Below the pieces are notes generated by a model. That model saw nothing but the letters and a program-made list of their open reading frames with translations, searched no databases and was not told where the DNA came from. A DNA stretch of 49,752 bases from Alicyclobacillus contaminans DSM 17975. Lineage in GTDB: Bacteria > Bacillota > Bacilli > Alicyclobacillales > Alicyclobacillaceae. The stretch covers positions 1 through 49,752 of the forward strand of contig NZ_AUCA01000027.1 of assembly GCF_000429525.1 (NCBI RefSeq), given 5' to 3'. Positions 39,425 to 49,752 of the stretch are shown in pieces (the first letter of the stretch is position 1; each line of letters starts with the position of its first letter). The translations under genes were made by a program, and so were the position numbers.

Positions 39425-40918
39425 ATGCAGGAAGCGATTTTGGCCATCGACTTGGGGACGAGTGCGTGCAAGGCGGTGTTGTTCGGCGCGGATGGCAGCG
39501 TCTTGGCGCATGCCACGATCCCGTATCCGACGTGGCGACCGGATGCCGTTCGCGCGGAACAGCATCCGAACGATTGGTGGAATGCGGCCACCCTGGCGGT
39601 TCGCCGGGTTGCGGCGACGGACGAGCGCGTCTGTGTGCGAGCCATTGTGTTGTCTTCACAACGGGAGACAGTGCTTCCGGTGGATGAGCACGGCAATCCG
39701 GTGCGTTCCGCGATGCTGTGGATGGACGGACGCGGTCTTGACGAGATTGCGTCGCTGCGTGAGCGATTCGGAAGGTCCATTCATCGCTGGACCGGCCTGG
39801 TTCCCAGTGCGACGTATTCCGCGGGGAAGATTCTGTGGATGCGCTGCCATCAGCCGGAACTGTTCTCCGCAACACGGCACTATCTACAGCCGAAAGACTT
39901 CCTTCTGTACCGTATGAGCGGGGTTCTGGCGACCGATGTCACGCTGGCCTCCCGAACCATGCTGTTCAATATGGAAACGCACACATGGCAGCAAGAACTG
40001 TTGGACGCCTGCGGCGTGACGGAGAAAGCGTTTCCTCCGGTGTACGCGTCGGATCTGGTGGTGGCCGAACTGCGCCCCGACGTGGCGCTGGATTGGGGAT
40101 TGCCTTCCGGCATTCCCATTGTTCTCGGGGGTGGCGACAGAGCCTGTGAAGTGCTCGGATCGGGCATTCAAGACGGAGAGGTGATGGAATCGACCGGAAC
40201 CACGAGTAACATCGCGTGTTCGGTGCTGGCTCCGCGTTTTTCGGAACGCGTCACCTGCTCGTGCCATGTCATACAGGGACAGTGGATTTTGGAACAGGGG
40301 CTGTCCACAACCGGGGCCATTGTGGACTGGGTTCGCTATCTGTTGGGGCATGACAATCTGCAAGAGCTGGATGCGGCTATCGACAAATCGTCTCCGGGAG
40401 CCGGAGGACTGCTGGTGCTGCCGTTCTTCATGGGCGCGCGGGCACCGCGTTGGAATCCGCTGGCGGAGGGCGCCATCATCGGCTTAACGCTCGCGCACAC
40501 GCGGGAGGATATCGTTCGCGCGGTGGTAGAAGGCATTGCGTACGAACTGCGTTTCGCGCTGGAAACCTACGGGGAGATGGGAATTCCCGTGGAGCGCATC
40601 CGGCTTGTGGGCGGCGGCGCGTACATGGACAAGTGGAACCAGATTAAGGCGACGGTCTACCAAAAACACCTGGCGGCTCCGCGCTGGGTGCACGCGGCGT
40701 CGTTCGGCGCCTACCTGTTGGCTGCGCGGCGGCTCGGCTGGATCACTTCGTACGGCGAGGGACAGGCCAACAACCCGTTGACCGCCATCTACCATCCGGA
40801 TCTGAAATACGTCGACCTGTATGATGAGGGATATCAACTGTACACGCAGTTGAACCACCAGTTGGAGCAGCAGTGGCCCTTGTTGGACGCTCACCGCCGC
40901 CGGGTGATGACTTTTTGA
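39425..40918 (+). CDS. FGGY-family carbohydrate kinase
   Basis: This 497-aa kinase has an N-terminal ATPase-fold domain starting ILAIDLGTSACKAVLF, the phrase MLWMDGRGLDEI typical of xylulokinase/gluconokinase types, and C-terminal motifs STTGAIVDWVRYLLG, FFMGARAPRWNPLAEGAIIG and RLVGGGAYMDKWNQIKA. The sugar cannot be assigned. The neighbours act on uronates and aldonates, so an aldonate or ketose substrate is possible. A TACAAT box (39374-39379) lies 46 bp upstream. The deoR gene follows after 82 bp and has its own promoter. Confidence 0.85.
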   Translation: MQEAILAIDLGTSACKAVLFGADGSVLAHATIPYPTWRPDAVRAEQHPNDWWNAATLAVRRVAATDERVCVRAIVLSSQRETVLPVDEHGNPVRSAMLWMDGRGLDEIASLRERFGRSIHRWTGLVPSATYSAGKILWMRCHQPELFSATRHYLQPKDFLLYRMSGVLATDVTLASRTMLFNMETHTWQQELLDACGVTEKAFPPVYASDLVVAELRPDVALDWGLPSGIPIVLGGGDRACEVLGSGIQDGEVMESTGTTSNIACSVLAPRFSERVTCSCHVIQGQWILEQGLSTTGAIVDWVRYLLGHDNLQELDAAIDKSSPGAGGLLVLPFFMGARAPRWNPLAEGAIIGLTLAHTREDIVRAVVEGIAYELRFALETYGEMGIPVERIRLVGGGAYMDKWNQIKATVYQKHLAAPRWVHAASFGAYLLAARRLGWITSYGEGQANNPLTAIYHPDLKYVDLYDEGYQLYTQLNHQLEQQWPLLDAHRRRVMTF

Positions 40919-40926
40919 CAAACGAA

Positions 40927-40967
40927 TGTTGGAATGTGTTGTTTTGTGTTGGATTTTCGTCTATGAT
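40927..40967 (+). promoter_or_regulatory. Promoter with three 10-bp-phased TGTTG repeats before deoR
   Basis: TTGTTT (40939-40944), a 17-bp spacer and TATGAT (40962-40967) form the promoter. TGTTG recurs at 40927, 40937 and 40947, exactly one helical turn apart, as TGTTGGAATG, TGTTGTTTTG and TGTTGGATTT. The repeats cover the -35 and spacer. DeoR-family repressors often bind direct repeats with 10-11-bp spacing, so this is probably the autoregulatory operator. Confidence 0.6.
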
Positions 40968-41000
40968 CTCTCGTAAACGACGTGGAAGGGAGGGGATGCG

Positions 41001-41765
41001 GTGCTGGGAGAACTGCGGCAGCAAAAGCTGGTGGACTTGTTGATGACGAAAAAATCGGTCCGGATCAGCGAACTCCGGGAGATGTTCGACGTGTCTGAAG
41101 AGACCATTCGGCGTGACCTGAAGAAGCTGGAATCGGACGGTGTACTCAAGCGCACGCACGGTGGTGCCATTTTGGCCGAAGAAGTGCACGTGGTGCCGCC
41201 GTTCAGCCAGCGCAGTCAACAGCAGCTGCGCGAAAAGATGGCGTTGGCCGACAAAGCGGCGGCGCTGGTGGGCGAGCGCGCCACGGTGATGTTGGACAGC
41301 GGTTCCACCACCCTGGAGATTGCCCGCAGGTTGGCGGGGCGGCATGTCACCGTCATCACCAATGATCTGACCATTGCCATGGAACTGAGCGGCAGTCTGC
41401 ACGTGCAGTTGATTGTGCTGGGGGGGAGTCAGCAGAAGGGAACCTGCACGCTGGTCGGCCCCGAGTGCGAGGAGACCATTCAGCGGTACCACGTCGACTT
41501 CGTGTTTCTCGGGACGGGAGGTATCAGCGTGAAGCAGGGCCTCACCACATCGTCCAGCGCGGAGGCCATCGTCAAACGGGCGATGATGGCCGCGGGGCGA
41601 GAGGTGTACTGCGTGGCTGACCGAAGCAAGTTTGGCCGTGCCGCGCTGGTGTCCTACGCCAAACCGGAGGAAATCACCGGCATTCTGACCAATCCGAGCG
41701 TGGACGCCGAGTGGGTGCAGCCTCTGCTTGAACGGGGAACGAACATCGTGTACGCGGACGCCTGA
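41001..41765 (+). CDS. DeoR-family transcriptional regulator
   Basis: This 254-aa repressor has an N-terminal winged helix-turn-helix (residues 5-57: RQQKLVDLLMTKKSVRISEL, VSEETIRRDLKKLESDG) and the DeoR sensor domain with sugar-phosphate motifs MLDSGSTTLEIARRL, VITNDLTIA, VFLGTGGISVKQGLTTSS and VADRSKFGRAAL. GTG 41001 follows GGGAGGGG. It likely represses the genes downstream and itself and is released by a phosphorylated pathway intermediate. It lies between the kinase and the uxaA-iolB-uxaB genes. Confidence 0.9.
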   Translation: MLGELRQQKLVDLLMTKKSVRISELREMFDVSEETIRRDLKKLESDGVLKRTHGGAILAEEVHVVPPFSQRSQQQLREKMALADKAAALVGERATVMLDSGSTTLEIARRLAGRHVTVITNDLTIAMELSGSLHVQLIVLGGSQQKGTCTLVGPECEETIQRYHVDFVFLGTGGISVKQGLTTSSSAEAIVKRAMMAAGREVYCVADRSKFGRAALVSYAKPEEITGILTNPSVDAEWVQPLLERGTNIVYADA

Positions 41766-41835
41766 GGTCCGGCGATGGGGTCTTGAAATCAACATCCGGG
41801 AGAACGGCGGTGCGCAACAACAGGGGGCGAGGAAC

Positions 41836-43332
41836 GTGTACGCAGTTCGGCAATTGCACGAACAGGACGAAGTGGCAGTGGCGCTGCGGCCATTGGCCAA
41901 AGGTGAGCAGATTCAGGTTGCGGGGCGGTCGGTTCGCGTGGAGGAAGATATTCCGCGCGGGCATAAGGTGGCGCTGCAGGCGCTCGCGGCCGGTGCGGTG
42001 GTCCACAAATACGGTTACGCCATTGGCCGGACCGCGGCCCAGGTTCAGCCGGGGCAGTGGGTTCATACGCACAATTTGAAAAGCGGGCTGGCGGGCAAGG
42101 CGGATTATGTGTATCAGCCCGCCGGAAGCTCGGTCGCTCCCGGCAGTTCGCCGTCCACGCGGACGTTTCTCGGCTATGTGCGCGAAAACGGAGACGTGGG
42201 CATTCGCAATGAGCTGTGGGTGCTCAATACGGTCGGATGTGTGAACAAGACGGCGGAACGCCTGGCGAAGATGGCGCATGCTGAATGGGCGGGCGACGGC
42301 ATCGACGGTTTTTACCATTTTCCCCATCCCTACGGCTGCTCTCAATTGGGAGACGATTTGGTGTATACGCAGAAGGCTTTGGCGGGCCTGGTTCGGCATC
42401 CCAACGCGGCGGGGGTGCTGGTGATTGGTCTTGGCTGCGAAAACAACCGGCTGGATGCATTTCGGCCATTGCTGGCGGATGTGCCTCCGGAAAAAGTGCG
42501 CTACTTGGCGGTTCAGGAAGTGACCGACGAGTTCGAAGCGGGCATGTCGCTCCTCGCCGAACTGGCGGCGTACGCCCGAACCTTCCAACGCACGCCGGTA
42601 CCGGTGTCGAGGCTGCGGATTGGCATGAAATGCGGCGGATCGGACGGGTTTTCCGGCTTGACCGCCAATCCGCTGGTGGGCCGTGTGGCCGATTTGCTGG
42701 TGGCCGAGGGCGGCACGGCCATGTTGACCGAGGTGCCGGAGATGTTTGGCGCCGAGACCATTTTGATGGAACGGGCGGTGAACGAGTCGGTGTTCCGAGA
42801 CGTGGTTCACCTGATTGACGACTTCAAGGACTACTACACCCGGCACGGCCAGGTGATTTATGAAAACCCGTCGCCAGGAAACAAGGACGGCGGTATCACC
42901 ACCCTCGAGGAGAAGTCGCTCGGGTGCATTCAGAAAGGCGGACGAGCCGCGGTGTCCGGCGTGGCGTTGTACGGAGAGCCGGTTCGCAGTCCGGGATTGC
43001 AGTTGGTGCAGGCACCCGGGAATGACATGGTATCCGTGACCGCGCTGGTGGCGGCCGGCGCACACATGGTGCTGTTCACCACGGGGCGGGGGACGCCCAT
43101 GGGGGGAGCCGTACCCACCGTCAAAATCTCGACCAACACGGAGTTGTACGAAAAGAAACCGAGCTGGATTGATTTCAATGCCGGATCCCTCGTGGCCGGA
43201 GCGGATATGGACGACCTGGCCCAACAGCTGTTTGAACACTTGCTGCAGGTGGCGAATGGCGCCATCCGAACCAAGAATGAGCAGAACGACTTTCGAGAAA
43301 TCGCAATTTTCAAGGACGGCGTCACGCTGTGA
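41836..43332 (+). CDS. uxaA: Altronate dehydratase (UxaA family)
   Basis: This 498-aa enzyme dehydrates D-altronate to 2-keto-3-deoxygluconate. Residues 1-95 form the SAF domain (VALRPLAKGEQIQV, EDIPRGHKVALQAL). The catalytic part shows FLGYVRENGDVGIRN, HPYGCSQLGDD, VIGLGCENN, MKCGGSDGFSGLTANP and GNKDGGITTLEEKSLGC, with cysteines suited to an iron centre. GTG 41836 follows a GGGGGCGAGGA site. The UxaA family also includes galactarate and sulfolactate-type dehydratases, but the UxaB homologue two genes on favours altronate. Confidence 0.9.
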   Translation: MYAVRQLHEQDEVAVALRPLAKGEQIQVAGRSVRVEEDIPRGHKVALQALAAGAVVHKYGYAIGRTAAQVQPGQWVHTHNLKSGLAGKADYVYQPAGSSVAPGSSPSTRTFLGYVRENGDVGIRNELWVLNTVGCVNKTAERLAKMAHAEWAGDGIDGFYHFPHPYGCSQLGDDLVYTQKALAGLVRHPNAAGVLVIGLGCENNRLDAFRPLLADVPPEKVRYLAVQEVTDEFEAGMSLLAELAAYARTFQRTPVPVSRLRIGMKCGGSDGFSGLTANPLVGRVADLLVAEGGTAMLTEVPEMFGAETILMERAVNESVFRDVVHLIDDFKDYYTRHGQVIYENPSPGNKDGGITTLEEKSLGCIQKGGRAAVSGVALYGEPVRSPGLQLVQAPGNDMVSVTALVAAGAHMVLFTTGRGTPMGGAVPTVKISTNTELYEKKPSWIDFNAGSLVAGADMDDLAQQLFEHLLQVANGAIRTKNEQNDFREIAIFKDGVTL

Positions 43333-43397
43333 CACTCCCACTGAAATTCACAAAATTCCACATCGTGGCGCGCGCCAATACAGGGAGGTAGACATCC

Positions 43398-44198
43398 GTG
43401 TTTCTACTAAAAGCAAACCTGCAATCCGGTTACCAGGCGATTGTCACGAAGGAGAATGCCGCAGGGCTGAAGTGGCTCGAATTCGCCATGCTCCGTTTGG
43501 CTCCCGGACAGTCCCACAAGGCGAACACCGGCAAACTCGAGACCGTGTTGGTGCTGCAGCAGGGGAAATGCCAGATTTCCGCCGGTGACGAGCACTACGG
43601 CGGCCTGTCCCGCGAGAGCGTATTTGCCGAAAAGGCGTCCGCGGTGTACGTGCCCATTGAGACCGACTACGTTGTCGAAAATGTTGGAGACACGACGCTG
43701 GAGGTCGCGGTCTGCATGGCGCCGGCGGACACCAAGCACGCGCCGTTCTTAGTGCGGCCCGACGATGTCTGGGATAGGACTGTGGGCCGGGACAATTTCG
43801 CGCGCCAGGTGCACGATATCGTGGTCAAGAACGCGGAGGGCCGGGTTCAGCGGATCATCGTGGGCGAGACGTTCAACCCGCCGGGGAACTGGTCCAGCTA
43901 TCCGCCGCACAAGCATGACGACTACAAGCCCGGTGTGGAGGCGTGCATGGAGGAAGTATACTTCTACCGCCTGCACCCCGAACAGGGATTTGGCCTCCAG
44001 TCCATCTACACTGCGGATCGGAAGTTGGACGAAACGTATCGCGTGGAGCATGGAGACACCTTCCTCATCCCCTACGGATACCATCCCGTCTGCGCCGGTG
44101 CGGGTTATCAGTTGTACTATCTGTGGGTGATGGCGGGAGACATCGACCGGGTGATGATTCCCAATGACGATCCGGCCCACACCTGGGTCCGCCAGTAA
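43398..44198 (+). CDS. iolB: IolB-family isomerase (5-deoxyglucuronate isomerase-like)
   Basis: This 266-aa bicupin matches IolB, which isomerises 5-deoxy-glucuronate in inositol breakdown. The C-terminal cupin carries the conserved FNPPGNWSSYPPHKHDDY with metal histidines, EEVYFYRLHPEQGFGLQSIY, and GDTFLIPYGYHPVCAGAGYQ. No other iol gene is near. It sits between uxaA and uxaB, where a uronate isomerase (UxaC) would be expected, so it may convert galacturonate or a related uronate to its keto form. KduI, a related isomerase, has been linked to such a reaction. GTG 43398 follows GGGAGGT by 8 nt. Confidence 0.88.
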   Translation: MFLLKANLQSGYQAIVTKENAAGLKWLEFAMLRLAPGQSHKANTGKLETVLVLQQGKCQISAGDEHYGGLSRESVFAEKASAVYVPIETDYVVENVGDTTLEVAVCMAPADTKHAPFLVRPDDVWDRTVGRDNFARQVHDIVVKNAEGRVQRIIVGETFNPPGNWSSYPPHKHDDYKPGVEACMEEVYFYRLHPEQGFGLQSIYTADRKLDETYRVEHGDTFLIPYGYHPVCAGAGYQLYYLWVMAGDIDRVMIPNDDPAHTWVRQ

Positions 44199-44261
44199 CG
44201 CTGCGGACAGCGCGGGGCGCGGGCGGAAGTCGGTGAACAACAAGAAAAGTGGGGATTTCCA

Positions 44262-45794
44262 ATGAGGCTGTCCCGAGCAGTGCTTGACGCAACATCGAGA
44301 GCGGTCGCCGACCGCATTGCCGCGTACCCCGAACGGGTGATTCAAATTGGCGAAGGCAACTTTCTGCGGGGGTTTGCCGACTGGCTGATTGAACAGTTGA
44401 ATCGACACCGATTGTTCCAGGGACGCATTGTGGTTGTGGCCCCCCGGCCGACAGGTGCCGCCAATATTGAACGGCTCAACGCGCAGGACGGGTTGTACAC
44501 GGTCTGGCTGCGCGGGCTGGTCAACGGACAGCCGGTGGATGAACGGCAGATTGTCACTTCCATCAGCCGCGGGATCAATCCGCACACGGACTGGGACGCG
44601 GTCTTGGCCTGTGCCGAGAATCCGGACATCCGCATCGTGCTGTCGAACACGACGGAATCCGGCGTCCGTTACCAGCCGGAGCCGCGTCCGTTGGACCAAG
44701 CGCCGCTGTCGTTTCCCGGGAAACTGACCGCGTACCTATATCATCGATTCGCGCACTTTCAGGGCCATCCGGACGCGGGGATGGTGGTGGTGCCCTGTGA
44801 ACTCGTGGACGACAACGGCGCGAAGGTCCGGGAACTGGTGCTCCGGTATGCGGCGGACTGGCAGCTTCCCGAATCGTTCGCAGAGTGGGTGACGGCGCAC
44901 AACCGTTTCTGTAACACGCTGGTGGACCGCATCGTCACCGGATTTCCGCAGGGCACCTGCGCAGAGGACTGGGAGGACGTACTGGGCTACGCGGATGAAC
45001 TGTTGACAGTGGGAGAACCGTTTCACCTGTGGGTGATTGAAAACGCCGGACCGCTGGCGCAATGGTGGCCGTTTGACCGAATTGGGCTGAACGTGCACTA
45101 CGTGGCGGATGCAGCCCCCTACCGCGAACAGAAGGTGCGGATTCTCAACGGCAGTCACACAGCCATGGCAGGGCTGGGACTGCTGGCGGGCCTGCGAACG
45201 GTGCGCGAAGTCGTGGAACACCCGGTGCTCGGTACGTTTGTTCGGCGACTTCTGGACGACGAGGTGTTGCCGGTCCTCGCATCGCCGCCCGGGGGCGCGG
45301 CGAACGCTCATCGCGCATTCGCGGACGCCGTGCTGGAGCGCTTCCGAAATCCTTTCGTTGATCATCAACTGGCATCGCTCACACTGAACGGCACGGCGAA
45401 AATTCAGGTGCGCCTCCTGCCCATCCTGCAGTCGTACACGGCGCGGTTCGACCAGTTGCCCGCGCTCTTGGTGTGTGCATTGGCGGGCCAACTCTGGCTG
45501 TACAGAGGTACCTCCGCAGAGGTGCTGGGAGACCATCCGGCCACGGTCGCCGCCGTGCAGAACGTGTGGGCGGAGGAGCGGCAGGTGGGGTTGGCCCGGA
45601 CCGTGGAACGCCTGCTCGCCCTGACGTCGCTCTGGAAATGGGATCTGAACGAAGTTCCCGGCTTGGCAGCAGAGCTCACCCACCTGCTGCAGATGCTGCG
45701 GAACCACGGCGCGGTGCATACCGTGACCCGCGTGCTGGACCGCTGCGGTGTGCGCGTCGCCATCCGGACGGAGGGGACGAACCATGCTGAATGA
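44262..45794 (+). CDS. uxaB: Tagaturonate reductase / altronate oxidoreductase (UxaB-like)
   Basis: This 510-aa enzyme of the long-chain mannitol dehydrogenase family reduces tagaturonate to altronate with NADH. The N-terminal nucleotide region is VIQIGEGNFLRGFADWLIEQ; LSNTTESGVRY and VVVPCELVDDNG precede the C-terminal catalytic domain with KVRILNGSHTAMAGLGLLAG. The NGSHT signature and length separate it from mannitol dehydrogenase. It lies 63 bp after the iolB-like gene and ends the module. Together: isomerase, UxaB, UxaA, leaving KDG for a kinase and aldolase encoded elsewhere. Confidence 0.9.
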   Translation: MRLSRAVLDATSRAVADRIAAYPERVIQIGEGNFLRGFADWLIEQLNRHRLFQGRIVVVAPRPTGAANIERLNAQDGLYTVWLRGLVNGQPVDERQIVTSISRGINPHTDWDAVLACAENPDIRIVLSNTTESGVRYQPEPRPLDQAPLSFPGKLTAYLYHRFAHFQGHPDAGMVVVPCELVDDNGAKVRELVLRYAADWQLPESFAEWVTAHNRFCNTLVDRIVTGFPQGTCAEDWEDVLGYADELLTVGEPFHLWVIENAGPLAQWWPFDRIGLNVHYVADAAPYREQKVRILNGSHTAMAGLGLLAGLRTVREVVEHPVLGTFVRRLLDDEVLPVLASPPGGAANAHRAFADAVLERFRNPFVDHQLASLTLNGTAKIQVRLLPILQSYTARFDQLPALLVCALAGQLWLYRGTSAEVLGDHPATVAAVQNVWAEERQVGLARTVERLLALTSLWKWDLNEVPGLAAELTHLLQMLRNHGAVHTVTRVLDRCGVRVAIRTEGTNHAE

Positions 45795-46022: not shown

Positions 46023-46763
46023 TTGCGATTCACGCAAACCTATTTATTTCGGTGTGCCAACAATCCATACATACGGTATCCCAAGCCCTGGGACACGTAC
46101 TTCACGCTGCCGATTTCGGTGCCGGTATCCGAGTGGCTGTGTCGAACTCGCCTGACGCCGAACGGGATTTCCGTCATTTCTCTGTTGATCGCCTGCGTCG
46201 CCGCAGTGTTTTTTTATCGGGGCGATTGGCTCTCGTTGGTGATTGGGGCACTGATCTTTCACGTCTCGTATATTTTAGACTGTGCCGACGGGTACAAGGC
46301 CCGCAAGATGAACATGGCGTCGCAGCTCGGTCATTGGTTGGACCACACGTTCGATGAAGTGAAGAAACCCATTCTGTTGATTGCGCTGCTGTTGGGTCAG
46401 GATGCGCTGGACGCCGGCGACTGGTGGGGATGGGCGGCTGCGCTGCTGTACATATTCTCACGGGTGTTGGTGAAAACGGACAGCACGGTCAAGCGCAATT
46501 TGGGACAAACGCGCACCGACCTCCAGCAGGCGGGGCAGTCTCAAATGCCGGTGAGTCCGCGGCAAAAGTGGTTGTTTGAGCATTTCGGCGTGGTGGTGCT
46601 GTTCACGTCCATTGAAGCGCAGGCCCTGGCGTTTGTGGTCGGGCCGCTGTTGAACGCGCCGCTGATGGGGATTGCGTTGGCGGCGACGCTGTCGATTCTG
46701 TGGTTTATTTATGTGGACGGGATCCGATTTTGGAAACGGACACTGCGCGACGCTGCGCGGTGA
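46023..46763 (+). CDS. CDP-alcohol phosphatidyltransferase family protein
   Basis: This 246-aa membrane enzyme joins an alcohol to a CDP-activated lipid or polyol. The full family motif DxxDGxxARx8Gx3Dx3D is present: DCADGYKARKMNMASQLGHW, then LDHTFD. About six helices can be drawn; a soluble loop (TDSTVKRNLGQTRTDLQQAG) is unusual. The N-terminus PYIRYPKPWDTYFTLPISVP precedes helix 1. It lacks clear PgsA or PssA features, so the head group is unknown. TTG 46023 follows GAGAGGGGGAAG. A terminator follows at 46782. The phased repeats 160-200 bp upstream suggest inducible expression. Confidence 0.85.
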   Translation: MRFTQTYLFRCANNPYIRYPKPWDTYFTLPISVPVSEWLCRTRLTPNGISVISLLIACVAAVFFYRGDWLSLVIGALIFHVSYILDCADGYKARKMNMASQLGHWLDHTFDEVKKPILLIALLLGQDALDAGDWWGWAAALLYIFSRVLVKTDSTVKRNLGQTRTDLQQAGQSQMPVSPRQKWLFEHFGVVVLFTSIEAQALAFVVGPLLNAPLMGIALAATLSILWFIYVDGIRFWKRTLRDAAR

Positions 46764-48323: not shown

Positions 48324-49752
48324 TCTTTGAGTCAGTTTCCAGAAGGAAATTTCCGGATCAATGGCGAAACCTAACGGCAACAGCGTTGAGGAGGCTTCGC
48401 CATGCCACGAAAGAAGTACCGTGGTCACAACCACGACCAACTGCTCCTGCTGCCGCCGGACTTGAACGAGTGGTTGCCGGAAAACCATTTGGCACGGTTT
48501 ATCAGCGATGTTGTAGACCGGCTGGATACCTATGCCATTACGGAACCGTACGAACGGGAATTGCGGGGGTACCCGCCGTATCATCCTGTGATGTTGCTGA
48601 AGGTCCTCATTTATGCCTACTGCAAGGGTGTGTTCTCATCCCGGAAAATCGCAGCTGCGTGTGAGGACCAGGTGGCTTTTCGGTGGTTGTCCGCCAATCA
48701 GTGCCCGGACTTTCGCACCATCAGCGACTTTCGGAAGCGGCATCTGCACGTGTTCAAGGAGTTGTTCCTTCAGGTACTCCAGATTGCCCAGAGCGCTGGC
48801 ATGGTCAAGATGGGGCATGTGGCGTTGGATGGGACGAAGATTCGGGCGAATGCTTCCAAGCACAAGGCGATGAGCTATGGGCGGATGAAGCAGGAAGAGC
48901 AGCGCCTGCGTCAGGAGATTGCGGAGATGGTGCGGGAGGCAGAACGGACGGACCGACGGGAAGACAAGCTGTACGGCGACGCACGTGGCGATGAGTTACC
49001 GGAGGAGTTGGCCCGTCGACAGAGCCGGTTGGCGAAGATTCAGGAAGCCATGGCTGCGTTGGAAGCTGAAGAGAGAGCCAAGGCAGAAGCCGAGCAGGCG
49101 CAACCGGACGATGATGATGACGAGGGTCAGTCCGGCGGCGGGCAATGCCATGGACGGAAAGGGGTCGGTCAGCTGTGAAGGCGGTCCCCAAGGACAAAGC
49201 CCAGCGAAACTTTACGGACCCGGAATCTCGTATCATGCCGTCCAAGGATGGTTTTGTACAGGCGTACAACGTGCAATCCGTGGTGGACGAAAAGTGTCAA
49301 ATCATCGTGGCAACTGAAGTGACCAATTCACCCAATGATGCTGGGGTACTCAGGACACTGGTGGAAATGGCGGAGCAGAACACGGGAAGGGTGCCAAAGA
49401 AACTGTCAGCTGACGCAGGCTACTATGCGCAGGACGATGTGGTGTGGCTGGAGGAGCGAGGGGTGATGCGTATATTGCGACCGGACGTCAAAAACACGGC
49501 GAGATCCCGGTATGTCCCAGGGGTCGGATTTCGAAGTCGTATACACCGAAGCAACGGATGGCACGGAAGCTGATGACCAAACGAGGCCGGGCGATATACG
49601 CCAAGCGGAAGGTCATCGTGGAGCCTGTGTACGGCCACATCAAGGCGTGCATGGGGTTTGTTCGCTTCTCCTTGCGTGGGCTGGCTAAGGTGCGAGGGGA
49701 ATGGTCCTTGGTAGCGATGTGCCACAACCTCCTGAAGATATTCCGGTATGGA
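48312..49752 (+). mobile_element. IS1182-family insertion sequence (left part)
   Basis: The element holds an IS1182-type transposase frame and runs off the right edge. Its left end is placed tentatively at 48312 (GTGTCCGAGTAAT), based on the change in composition and on GTGTCCGAG-like termini I recall for such elements; the right end is not visible, so the inverted repeat is untested. The ~90-bp leader before the transposase contains GAGGAGG 7 nt before the ATG. Confidence 0.7.
48402..49752 (+). pseudogene. IS1182 family transposase with two frameshifts, partial
   Basis: The N-terminal frame (from ATG 48402) carries PPYHPVMLLKVLIYAYCKGV, SSRKIAAACEDQVAFRWLSA, DFRTISDFRKRH and ALDGTKIRANASKHKAMSY, the standard IS1182/DUF772 start with a catalytic Asp. 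A one-base loss near 49161-49164 (GGGG) moves the frame to one with KAQRNFTDPESRIM and SADAGYYAQDD. A second loss near 49465 (GTGATG, expected GTGGATG) moves it to one with AYIATGRQKHGEIP, TPKQRMARKLMTKRGRAIYA and IVEPVYGHIKACMGF, then GLAKVRGEWSL. With both bases restored the protein is continuous to the window edge. As given, it is non-functional. Confidence 0.85.

What the first reader, a model, noticed from the sequence alone, without database searches (positions are those of the whole stretch)
39425..45794. Uronate operon with an IolB-type isomerase in place of UxaC
UxaA and UxaB homologues imply galacturonate breakdown through tagaturonate and altronate, but the isomerase gene between them is IolB-like and no other inositol gene is present. 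An FGGY kinase is included although the standard route needs only a PfkB-type KDG kinase. The set may define a variant hexuronate pathway or one for an unusual sugar acid.
Basis: partly seen in the sequence, partly recalled or inferred. Interest (0 to 1): 0.58.

Follow-up and report, generated by a model that had tools for sequence, protein, structure and literature searches.

The report
Inositol-type isomerase serving galacturonate breakdown
In Alicyclobacillus and its relatives, the enzyme that starts breakdown of the pectin sugar galacturonate appears often to have been replaced by an unrelated enzyme from the inositol-breakdown family, which points to an overlooked and probably mislabelled group of sugar-acid isomerases.

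Summary
In detail: one strand carries FGGY kinase, DeoR regulator, UxaA, an IolB-family cupin and UxaB. The cupin is the genome's only PF04962 hit; no PF02614 UxaC and no true IolD or IolE was found. Of 59 genomes of the order, 37 have a true UxaB: its cluster holds IolB in 26, UxaC in 7, neither in 4, both in none. These cupins form a clade apart from inositol-operon IolB, with four diagnostic positions, and the UxaB tree suggests repeated exchange. Best reading: a D-galacturonate-to-tagaturonate isomerase that displaced UxaC.

It does not explain the pattern: 10 of the 26 IolB genomes lack both UxaC and the BH0493 type. The FGGY kinase stays unresolved. No activity has been measured. Ten searches of an open-access library showed no report of this function in what I saw.

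The parts
39425..40918 (+). FGGY-family carbohydrate kinase, substrate unknown (candidate KDG or aldonate kinase)
   Evidence: Pfam PF00370/PF02782; XylB model below cut-off; nine orthologues at 45% identity or more among 59 order genomes, this one included
41001..41765 (+). DeoR/GlpR-family transcriptional regulator, GTG start
   Evidence: PF00455 and PF08220
41836..43332 (+). UxaA, D-altronate dehydratase, GTG start
   Evidence: SAF, GD_AH_second and GD_AH_C domains; beside UxaB in many relatives
43398..44198 (+). IolB-family cupin (clade II), proposed D-galacturonate/D-tagaturonate isomerase, GTG start
   Evidence: PF04962 and TIGR04378 over cut-off; clade apart from iol-operon IolB; AlphaFold2 model pLDDT 85, nearest solved fold 2qjv
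44262..45794 (+). UxaB, tagaturonate reductase (D-altronate dehydrogenase)
   Evidence: NF002969 582 bits against a 359 cut-off

Best explanation
The IolB-family protein is a metal-dependent cupin aldose-ketose isomerase that converts D-galacturonate to D-tagaturonate. UxaB reduces this to D-altronate and UxaA dehydrates that to 2-keto-3-deoxygluconate (KDG). KDG is then phosphorylated and cleaved by KdgK and Eda, encoded elsewhere in this genome; the FGGY kinase may share the phosphorylation step. DeoR probably controls the operon. The cupin belongs to a clade of IolB relatives separate from the inositol enzyme and stands in for UxaC in this operon. The chemistry is plausible because IolB already isomerises 5-deoxy-D-glucuronate in the same way (recalled). 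Shown: gene content, co-location, mutual exclusion in the order, clade, diagnostic residues. Inferred: substrate, reaction, role of the kinase, regulation, direction of the replacement.
For: Of 37 order genomes with UxaB over cut-off, IolB is in the UxaB cluster in 26, UxaC in 7 (within 5 kb), both in 0, neither in 4; Fisher p 3e-5, not corrected for relatedness. On the UxaB tree starred branches force at least 3 changes of the IolB label: the window's UxaB groups with six UxaC-linked UxaBs (98/97), and G006 (IolB) pairs with G040 (UxaC) (97/92). Ten of the 26 IolB genomes have neither UxaC nor a BH0493-type enzyme, and seven of those ten also lack a KduI-like hit. In 97 IolB-family rows (96 different), one clade holds the 36 rows labelled iol (35 with IolD on the locus) plus 4 others; the other holds all 34 rows labelled uxa (UxaA or UxaB on every locus), plus 23 others, and no row with IolD on its locus. 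T158 and W243 are in 57 of 57 clade II rows, against V and N in 40 of 40 clade I rows; G156 57 of 57 against V 39, T 1; N160 50 of 57 against T 40 of 40. Outside the order, 7 of 12 clade II IolBs in sampled Bacilli lie beside UxaA or UxaB, while 8 of 8 sampled lower-scoring IolBs lie with IolD and IolE. Eda, UxuA, a KdgK candidate and a UxuB-like reductase exist on C23.
Against: No activity is measured. This genome has a second, BH0493-type uronate isomerase that could in principle feed UxaB. One cluster outside the order (L250) carries both the cupin and UxaC. Two of the 26 IolB genomes (G046, G048) also have UxaC, in separate glucuronate-type operons. Five of 12 clade II IolBs outside the order have no UxaA or UxaB within about 5 kb, although L258 has a UxaA about 6 kb away. 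Some clade II members, four copies within the order included, lie in other contexts, so the clade is not uniformly a galacturonate isomerase. G040's UxaB is flagged as a long branch, so the G006/G040 pairing is less sure. TIGR04378 still names the protein 5-deoxy-glucuronate isomerase.
Confidence: 0.77

Rival explanations
1. The BH0493-type enzyme on C23 supplies tagaturonate, and the IolB-like protein does something else in the operon, such as isomerising a different uronate or a deoxy- or keto-uronate from pectin.
For: The BH0493-type protein is present and aligns over almost its whole length to solved BH0493, named uronate isomerase in some PDB entries. It is full-length in 13 of the 26 IolB genomes and in fragments in one more.
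Against: Ten of the 26 IolB genomes lack both it and UxaC. It also occurs in three of the seven UxaC-type genomes (G001, G008, and a fragment in G007), so it is not the special partner of IolB; in G000 it sits with UxuB-like and UxuA genes.
Confidence: 0.12
2. The cupin is a true 5-deoxy-glucuronate isomerase and the operon belongs to an inositol route, for example one that passes through tagaturonate as in Thermotoga.
For: It exceeds the TIGR04378 cut-off. An inositol route through 5-keto-L-gluconate and tagaturonate is known in Thermotoga (recalled; the IolO epimerase of Thermotoga is mentioned in a passage of PMC12632266).
Against: No true IolD or IolE in the genome. No protein with IolD on its locus falls in its clade. 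The place is exchanged with UxaC.
Confidence: 0.05
3. The operon serves an unusual sugar acid, or an aldonate phosphorylated by the FGGY kinase, rather than galacturonate.
For: The FGGY kinase has no assigned substrate. A kinase-dependent branch exists in Lactobacillus suebicus, where mannonate is phosphorylated (PMC6978723, abstract and passages).
Against: FGGY orthologues are in only 9 of 59 genomes, most IolB operons lack one, and G040 has FGGY together with ordinary UxaC.
Confidence: 0.06

Closest known systems
UxaC/UxaA/UxaB galacturonate isomerase pathway
   Same: UxaB and UxaA in the operon, Eda and a KdgK candidate elsewhere in the genome; same proposed intermediates
   Different: The isomerase is a cupin of the IolB family instead of the PF02614 UxaC
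IolB, 5-deoxy-glucuronate isomerase
   Same: Same family model over cut-off; nearest solved fold is IolB-like 2qjv at 35% identity; putative metal ligands conserved
   Different: Different clade, four diagnostic positions, no true IolD or IolE in the genome
KduI, proposed alternative hexuronate isomerase of E. coli (PMC3578941; abstract and passages seen)
   Same: Same Pfam family and fold. The paper reports that KduI facilitates breakdown of galacturonate and glucuronate and hypothesises isomerisation to tagaturonate and fructuronate
   Different: 10-17% identity to the KduI chains listed; here the cupin sits in the uxa operon in place of UxaC
BH0493 uronate isomerase
   Same: Another UxaC alternative; a close relative is in this genome
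   Different: Amidohydrolase-superfamily enzyme (recalled), in a Uxu cluster here; a different protein family from the cupin

Membership tests
IolB (5-deoxy-glucuronate isomerase) | Scores over the TIGR04378 cut-off | tested here: met
   251.5 bits against 205
IolB (5-deoxy-glucuronate isomerase) | Genome holds the IolD and IolE steps that make its substrate | tested here: not met
   IolE best 47 of 290 bits; IolD best 229 of 715
IolB (5-deoxy-glucuronate isomerase) | Groups with iol-operon IolB in a tree | tested here: not met
   Separate clades, 100/100 and SH-aLRT 99
IolB (5-deoxy-glucuronate isomerase) | Activity on 5-deoxy-glucuronate | not testable with these tools
   needs enzyme assay
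UxaC uronate isomerase | PF02614 protein | tested here: not met
   The protein is PF04962; no PF02614 match in G000
UxaC uronate isomerase | Occupies the isomerase place in the UxaA/UxaB cluster | tested here: met
   26 IolB against 7 UxaC, none with both, of 37 genomes of the order; one exception with both outside the order (L250)
UxaC uronate isomerase | Converts galacturonate to tagaturonate | not testable with these tools
   needs enzyme assay
KduI | Closest to KduI rather than IolB | tested here: not met
   2qjv 35% identity and best E-value; listed KduI chains 10-17%
Hexuronate isomerase pathway | UxaB, UxaA, KDG kinase and KDPG aldolase in the genome | tested here: met
   the KdgK assignment rests on best but sub-cut-off models and context, Eda is over its cut-off (TIGR01182)
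Xylulokinase XylB (FGGY) | Over the TIGR01312 cut-off | tested here: not met
   344 against 380 bits
Gluconokinase GntK (FGGY) | Over the TIGR01314 cut-off | tested here: not met
   224 against 649 bits

The most novel reading that the evidence does not exclude
IolB-family clade II is an unrecognised, widespread group of cupin sugar-acid isomerases in bacteria and archaea, mislabelled as inositol enzymes. Its Bacilli branch is a new family of galacturonate isomerase that has been exchanged with UxaC several times, and in the FGGY-bearing operons an FGGY enzyme acts as an alternative KDG or aldonate kinase.
Probability: 0.4. Interest if true: 0.65.

Novelty: new variant of a known kind. Interest (0 to 1): 0.54.

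Why it matters
If true, the cupin fold supplies another, independently evolved enzyme for the first committed step of bacterial pectin-sugar breakdown. The protein passes NCBI's IolB model, so automatic annotation would call it an inositol enzyme; pathway reconstructions would then miss galacturonate use in Alicyclobacillus and some other Bacilli and invent a stray inositol gene. It is directly testable with one purified protein or one complementation.

Tried and rejected
I first took the genome as lacking any uronate isomerase, because Pfam's UxaC model found none. An unassigned ORF beside UxuB-like and UxuA genes that no Pfam model matched convincingly then matched BH0493 at 444 bits, so I dropped that claim and repeated the presence/absence count with the BH0493 type.

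I considered that the UxaB-linked IolB might be an ordinary iol gene moved by chance. The trees and the recurrence in 26 genomes speak against that.

I asked whether FGGY replaces PfkB KDG kinase. Of 37 UxaB genomes, 9 lack a KdgK like that of G022 at 45% identity or more, and 5 of these 9 have the FGGY orthologue, against 4 of the other 28; Fisher p 0.02, not corrected for relatedness. This genome has another KdgK candidate, so the result is only suggestive.

I looked for print reports with ten completed paper searches: IolB with uronate isomerase; KduI with galacturonate and tagaturonate; BH0493 or uronate isomerase (25 of 61 listed); Alicyclobacillus with galacturonate; 5-deoxy-glucuronate isomerase with galacturonate; uxaC with iolB; non-orthologous uxa genes; IolB-like, IolB family or IolB homolog; tagaturonate with cupin; and a four-term search (25 of 42 listed). 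I opened passages or the abstract of seven papers (PMC3578941, PMC4428132, PMC5507952, PMC6353982, PMC6978723, PMC12632266, PMC5808187). In these listings and passages I saw no IolB-family galacturonate isomerase. Most subscription papers are not held, so this is not proof of novelty.

Rows left out: of the 80 loci of the genome scan (itself capped at 80 of at least 591 matches) I put 35 into the 97-row tree; the rest were only mapped, and L129-L132 appear to be genomes already in it. One row pair (L152, L260) is identical. One of the 36 rows labelled iol (L108, at a contig edge) has no iol gene besides IolB on its locus and was labelled by its likeness to L107.

Not done: genome-wide searches for UxaE, IolA, IolC, IolG; operator analysis; mapping the diagnostic residues onto coordinates. 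The viral, phage, plasmid and E. coli collections were not searched.
Full report
What is there. The window lies on contig C26 of a 3.27 Mb genome rated 99.99% complete. On the + strand lie an FGGY kinase (39425-40918), a DeoR regulator (41001-41765), UxaA (41836-43332), an IolB-family protein (43398-44198) and UxaB (44262-45794), with gaps of 63 to 82 bases. UxaB is secure (582 bits, cut-off 359). The IolB-family protein passes the NCBI IolB model (251.5 bits, cut-off 205) and is the only PF04962 protein in the genome. UxaA has the three domains of altronate/galactarate dehydratases. The kinase passes no specific FGGY model.

Is the inositol pathway present? No true IolE (best 47 of 290 bits) and no true IolD (best 229 of 715 bits). 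In this order ten of 59 genomes have IolE over cut-off; each has an IolB of 288-342 bits, within about 5 kb of IolE in nine and on another contig in G021. On a representative locus the genes run IolA-B-C-D-E-G-J, named by size and order; these proteins served as my iol queries.

Is a uronate isomerase present elsewhere? Pfam's UxaC finds none in this genome. But on contig C23, between a sugar transporter and UxuB-like/UxuA/KdgK-like/Eda genes, lies a 413-residue protein without a Pfam family that aligns to BH0493 of Bacillus halodurans at 444 bits; some of those PDB entries are named uronate isomerase. So the genome has an isomerase for what looks like a glucuronate operon, with its own GntR/FCD regulator gene.

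Presence and absence. I searched the 59 genomes of the order for PF04962, UxaC, UxaB, IolE, the UxaA C-terminal domain and the BH0493 type, and fetched the surroundings of the 36 UxaB hits over cut-off outside the window. Of the 37 genomes with UxaB over cut-off, 26 have IolB in the cluster, 7 have UxaC within 5 kb, none has both, and 4 have neither. Of these four, G050 has UxaC and G028 a clade II IolB on another contig, G051's contig is only 5.2 kb long, and G029 has neither anywhere. Of the 26, two (G046, G048) carry a divergent UxaC in another operon with UxuA, Eda and KdgK-like genes, 13 carry a full-length BH0493-type gene, one (G037) carries fragments of it, and 10 carry neither (G002, G006, G009, G016, G023, G024, G025, G035, G038, G043). 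Three of those ten (G023, G024, G025) have a weak, KduI-like PF04962 hit; seven do not. In those seven a clade II cupin is the only candidate isomerase among those I searched for. Three UxaC-type genomes (G001, G008, and G007 as a fragment) also hold the BH0493 type, so that enzyme does not track the choice between UxaC and IolB.

Exchange on a common backbone. A tree of the 37 UxaB proteins needs 4 changes of the IolB label, at least 3 of them forced by well-supported branches; three changes may be one gain and two losses. The window's UxaB is sister to six UxaC-linked UxaBs (98/97), and G006 (IolB) is sister to G040 (UxaC) (97/92), though G040's row is flagged as long. G006 and G040 carry the FGGY kinases most like the window's (59% and 55% identity) with DeoR genes, so nearly the same set of genes exists with either isomerase. 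I take this as the strongest evidence that the two do the same job. UxaC could also have replaced IolB in some lineages; the direction was not tested.

A separate clade. In a 42-row tree the 12 iol-labelled IolBs and the 30 others separate at 100/100. With 55 further proteins from Bacilli genomes and a genome-wide scan, 97 rows (96 different) split into 40 (36 labelled iol, 4 unassigned) and 57 (34 labelled uxa, 23 other), SH-aLRT 99. A recheck of the labels found IolD on 35 of the 36 iol loci (L108 is the exception), UxaA or UxaB on every uxa locus, and neither IolD nor IolE on any uxa locus. Among the 23 others no locus has IolD; L144 has a weak IolE hit and L137 an IolG hit, while L135 and L258 have a UxaB or UxaA hit. 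Short contigs may hide neighbours. Four positions separate the clades: G156, T158, N160 and W243 in clade II against V, V, T and N in clade I (T158 and W243 without exception). Three of them lie close to the invariant E157. The residues I take for metal ligands by analogy with KduI (recalled), H171, H173, E186 and H229, are conserved in both (97, 96, 97 and 97 of 97). The AlphaFold2 model (pLDDT 85) is nearest IolB-like 2qjv, then KduI structures; residues 168-177, which hold two of those histidines, are of low confidence.

Beyond the order. A profile of 20 clade II proteins run on 398 genomes of the class finds 12 genomes outside the order with 314 to 345 bits, clear of the next group outside the order at 220 bits or less. 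Seven of the 12 lie beside UxaA or UxaB, one beside Eda and KdgK, two beside an M24-like gene, two beside none of the tested genes; L258 also has a UxaA about 6 kb away. Of the 220-bit group I fetched 8 loci, and all 8 have IolD and IolE. L250 holds both the cupin and UxaC, which tells against strict exclusion.

Mechanism. IolB (recalled), KduI and UxaC catalyse the same kind of aldose-ketose isomerisation on uronates. A cupin that accepts the 5-hydroxyl missing from 5-deoxyglucuronate would give tagaturonate, the substrate of UxaB. E. coli KduI has been reported to facilitate galacturonate and glucuronate breakdown, with isomerisation proposed as a hypothesis (PMC3578941, abstract and passages). 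The standard pathway is described in PMC6353982 (passages), which lists UxaC and mentions KduI but not IolB. In G016, and in G020 to G022, UxuA lies in the IolB cluster, so the enzyme may serve glucuronate too.

The kinase. FGGY orthologues occur in 9 of 59 genomes; eight lie in these uxa clusters, and G025's lies on another contig while its cluster starts at a contig edge. Their weak complementarity with one KdgK type (5 of 9 against 4 of 28) is not corrected for relatedness. A mannonate kinase activity takes part in galacturonate use by Lactobacillus suebicus (PMC6978723, abstract and passages) and a pyrophosphate-using KDG kinase acts in Luteolibacter (PMC12632266, abstract and passages), so unusual kinases in this route have precedent. 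I leave its substrate open.

Verdict. The remaining uncertainty is enzymatic. Novelty lies in assigning a new role to an IolB-family clade inside a known pathway.

Noticed in passing
L061, L063-L066, L068-L075, L084 (order loci); L255, L258 (other Bacilli): An M24/creatinase-like protein sits in 15 of 25 IolB-type loci outside the window and in none of the 7 UxaC-type loci. Of 17 copies aligned, 16 lack both aspartate metal ligands of prolidase but share conserved HHQGG and AWNP motifs; the 17th (L133) keeps them and looks like an ordinary M24. A metal-less M24 relative of unknown function; no match at E 1e-25 in the window's genome.
   Followed up: partly
L099:5756-6994 (own genome, contig C23): BH0493-type uronate isomerase with no convincing Pfam match, in a cluster with GntR regulator, sugar transporter, UxuB-like reductase, UxuA, KdgK candidate and Eda. 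Found in 21 of 59 order genomes, fragments included.
   Followed up: yes
L101:414-3991 and L102:6639-7454: Other clade II IolB copies in G046 and G035; in G046 two copies stand next to split transketolase genes and what look like transporter genes, suggesting further substrates for the clade.
   Followed up: partly
L134, L137, L135, L140: Clade II IolB relatives in metagenome bacteria beside xylose-isomerase-like TIM-barrel genes (L134, L137), and in Helarchaeota and Bathyarchaeota archaea (L135, L140); functions unknown.
   Followed up: partly
L250:7474-14153: A Bacilli cluster (G229) that carries both the clade II IolB and UxaC with UxaA, UxaB and transporter-like genes.
   Followed up: no
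L086, L088, L097: UxaB over cut-off with neither UxaA nor an isomerase nearby (G028, G029, G050), possibly reductases of another sugar acid.
   Followed up: no
window 46023-46763: CDP-alcohol phosphatidyltransferase-family protein just downstream of UxaB, probably unrelated to the operon.
   Followed up: no
window 48402-49573: Two overlapping ORFs in different frames that look like a transposase broken by a frameshift near the window's end (family by eye only).
   Followed up: no
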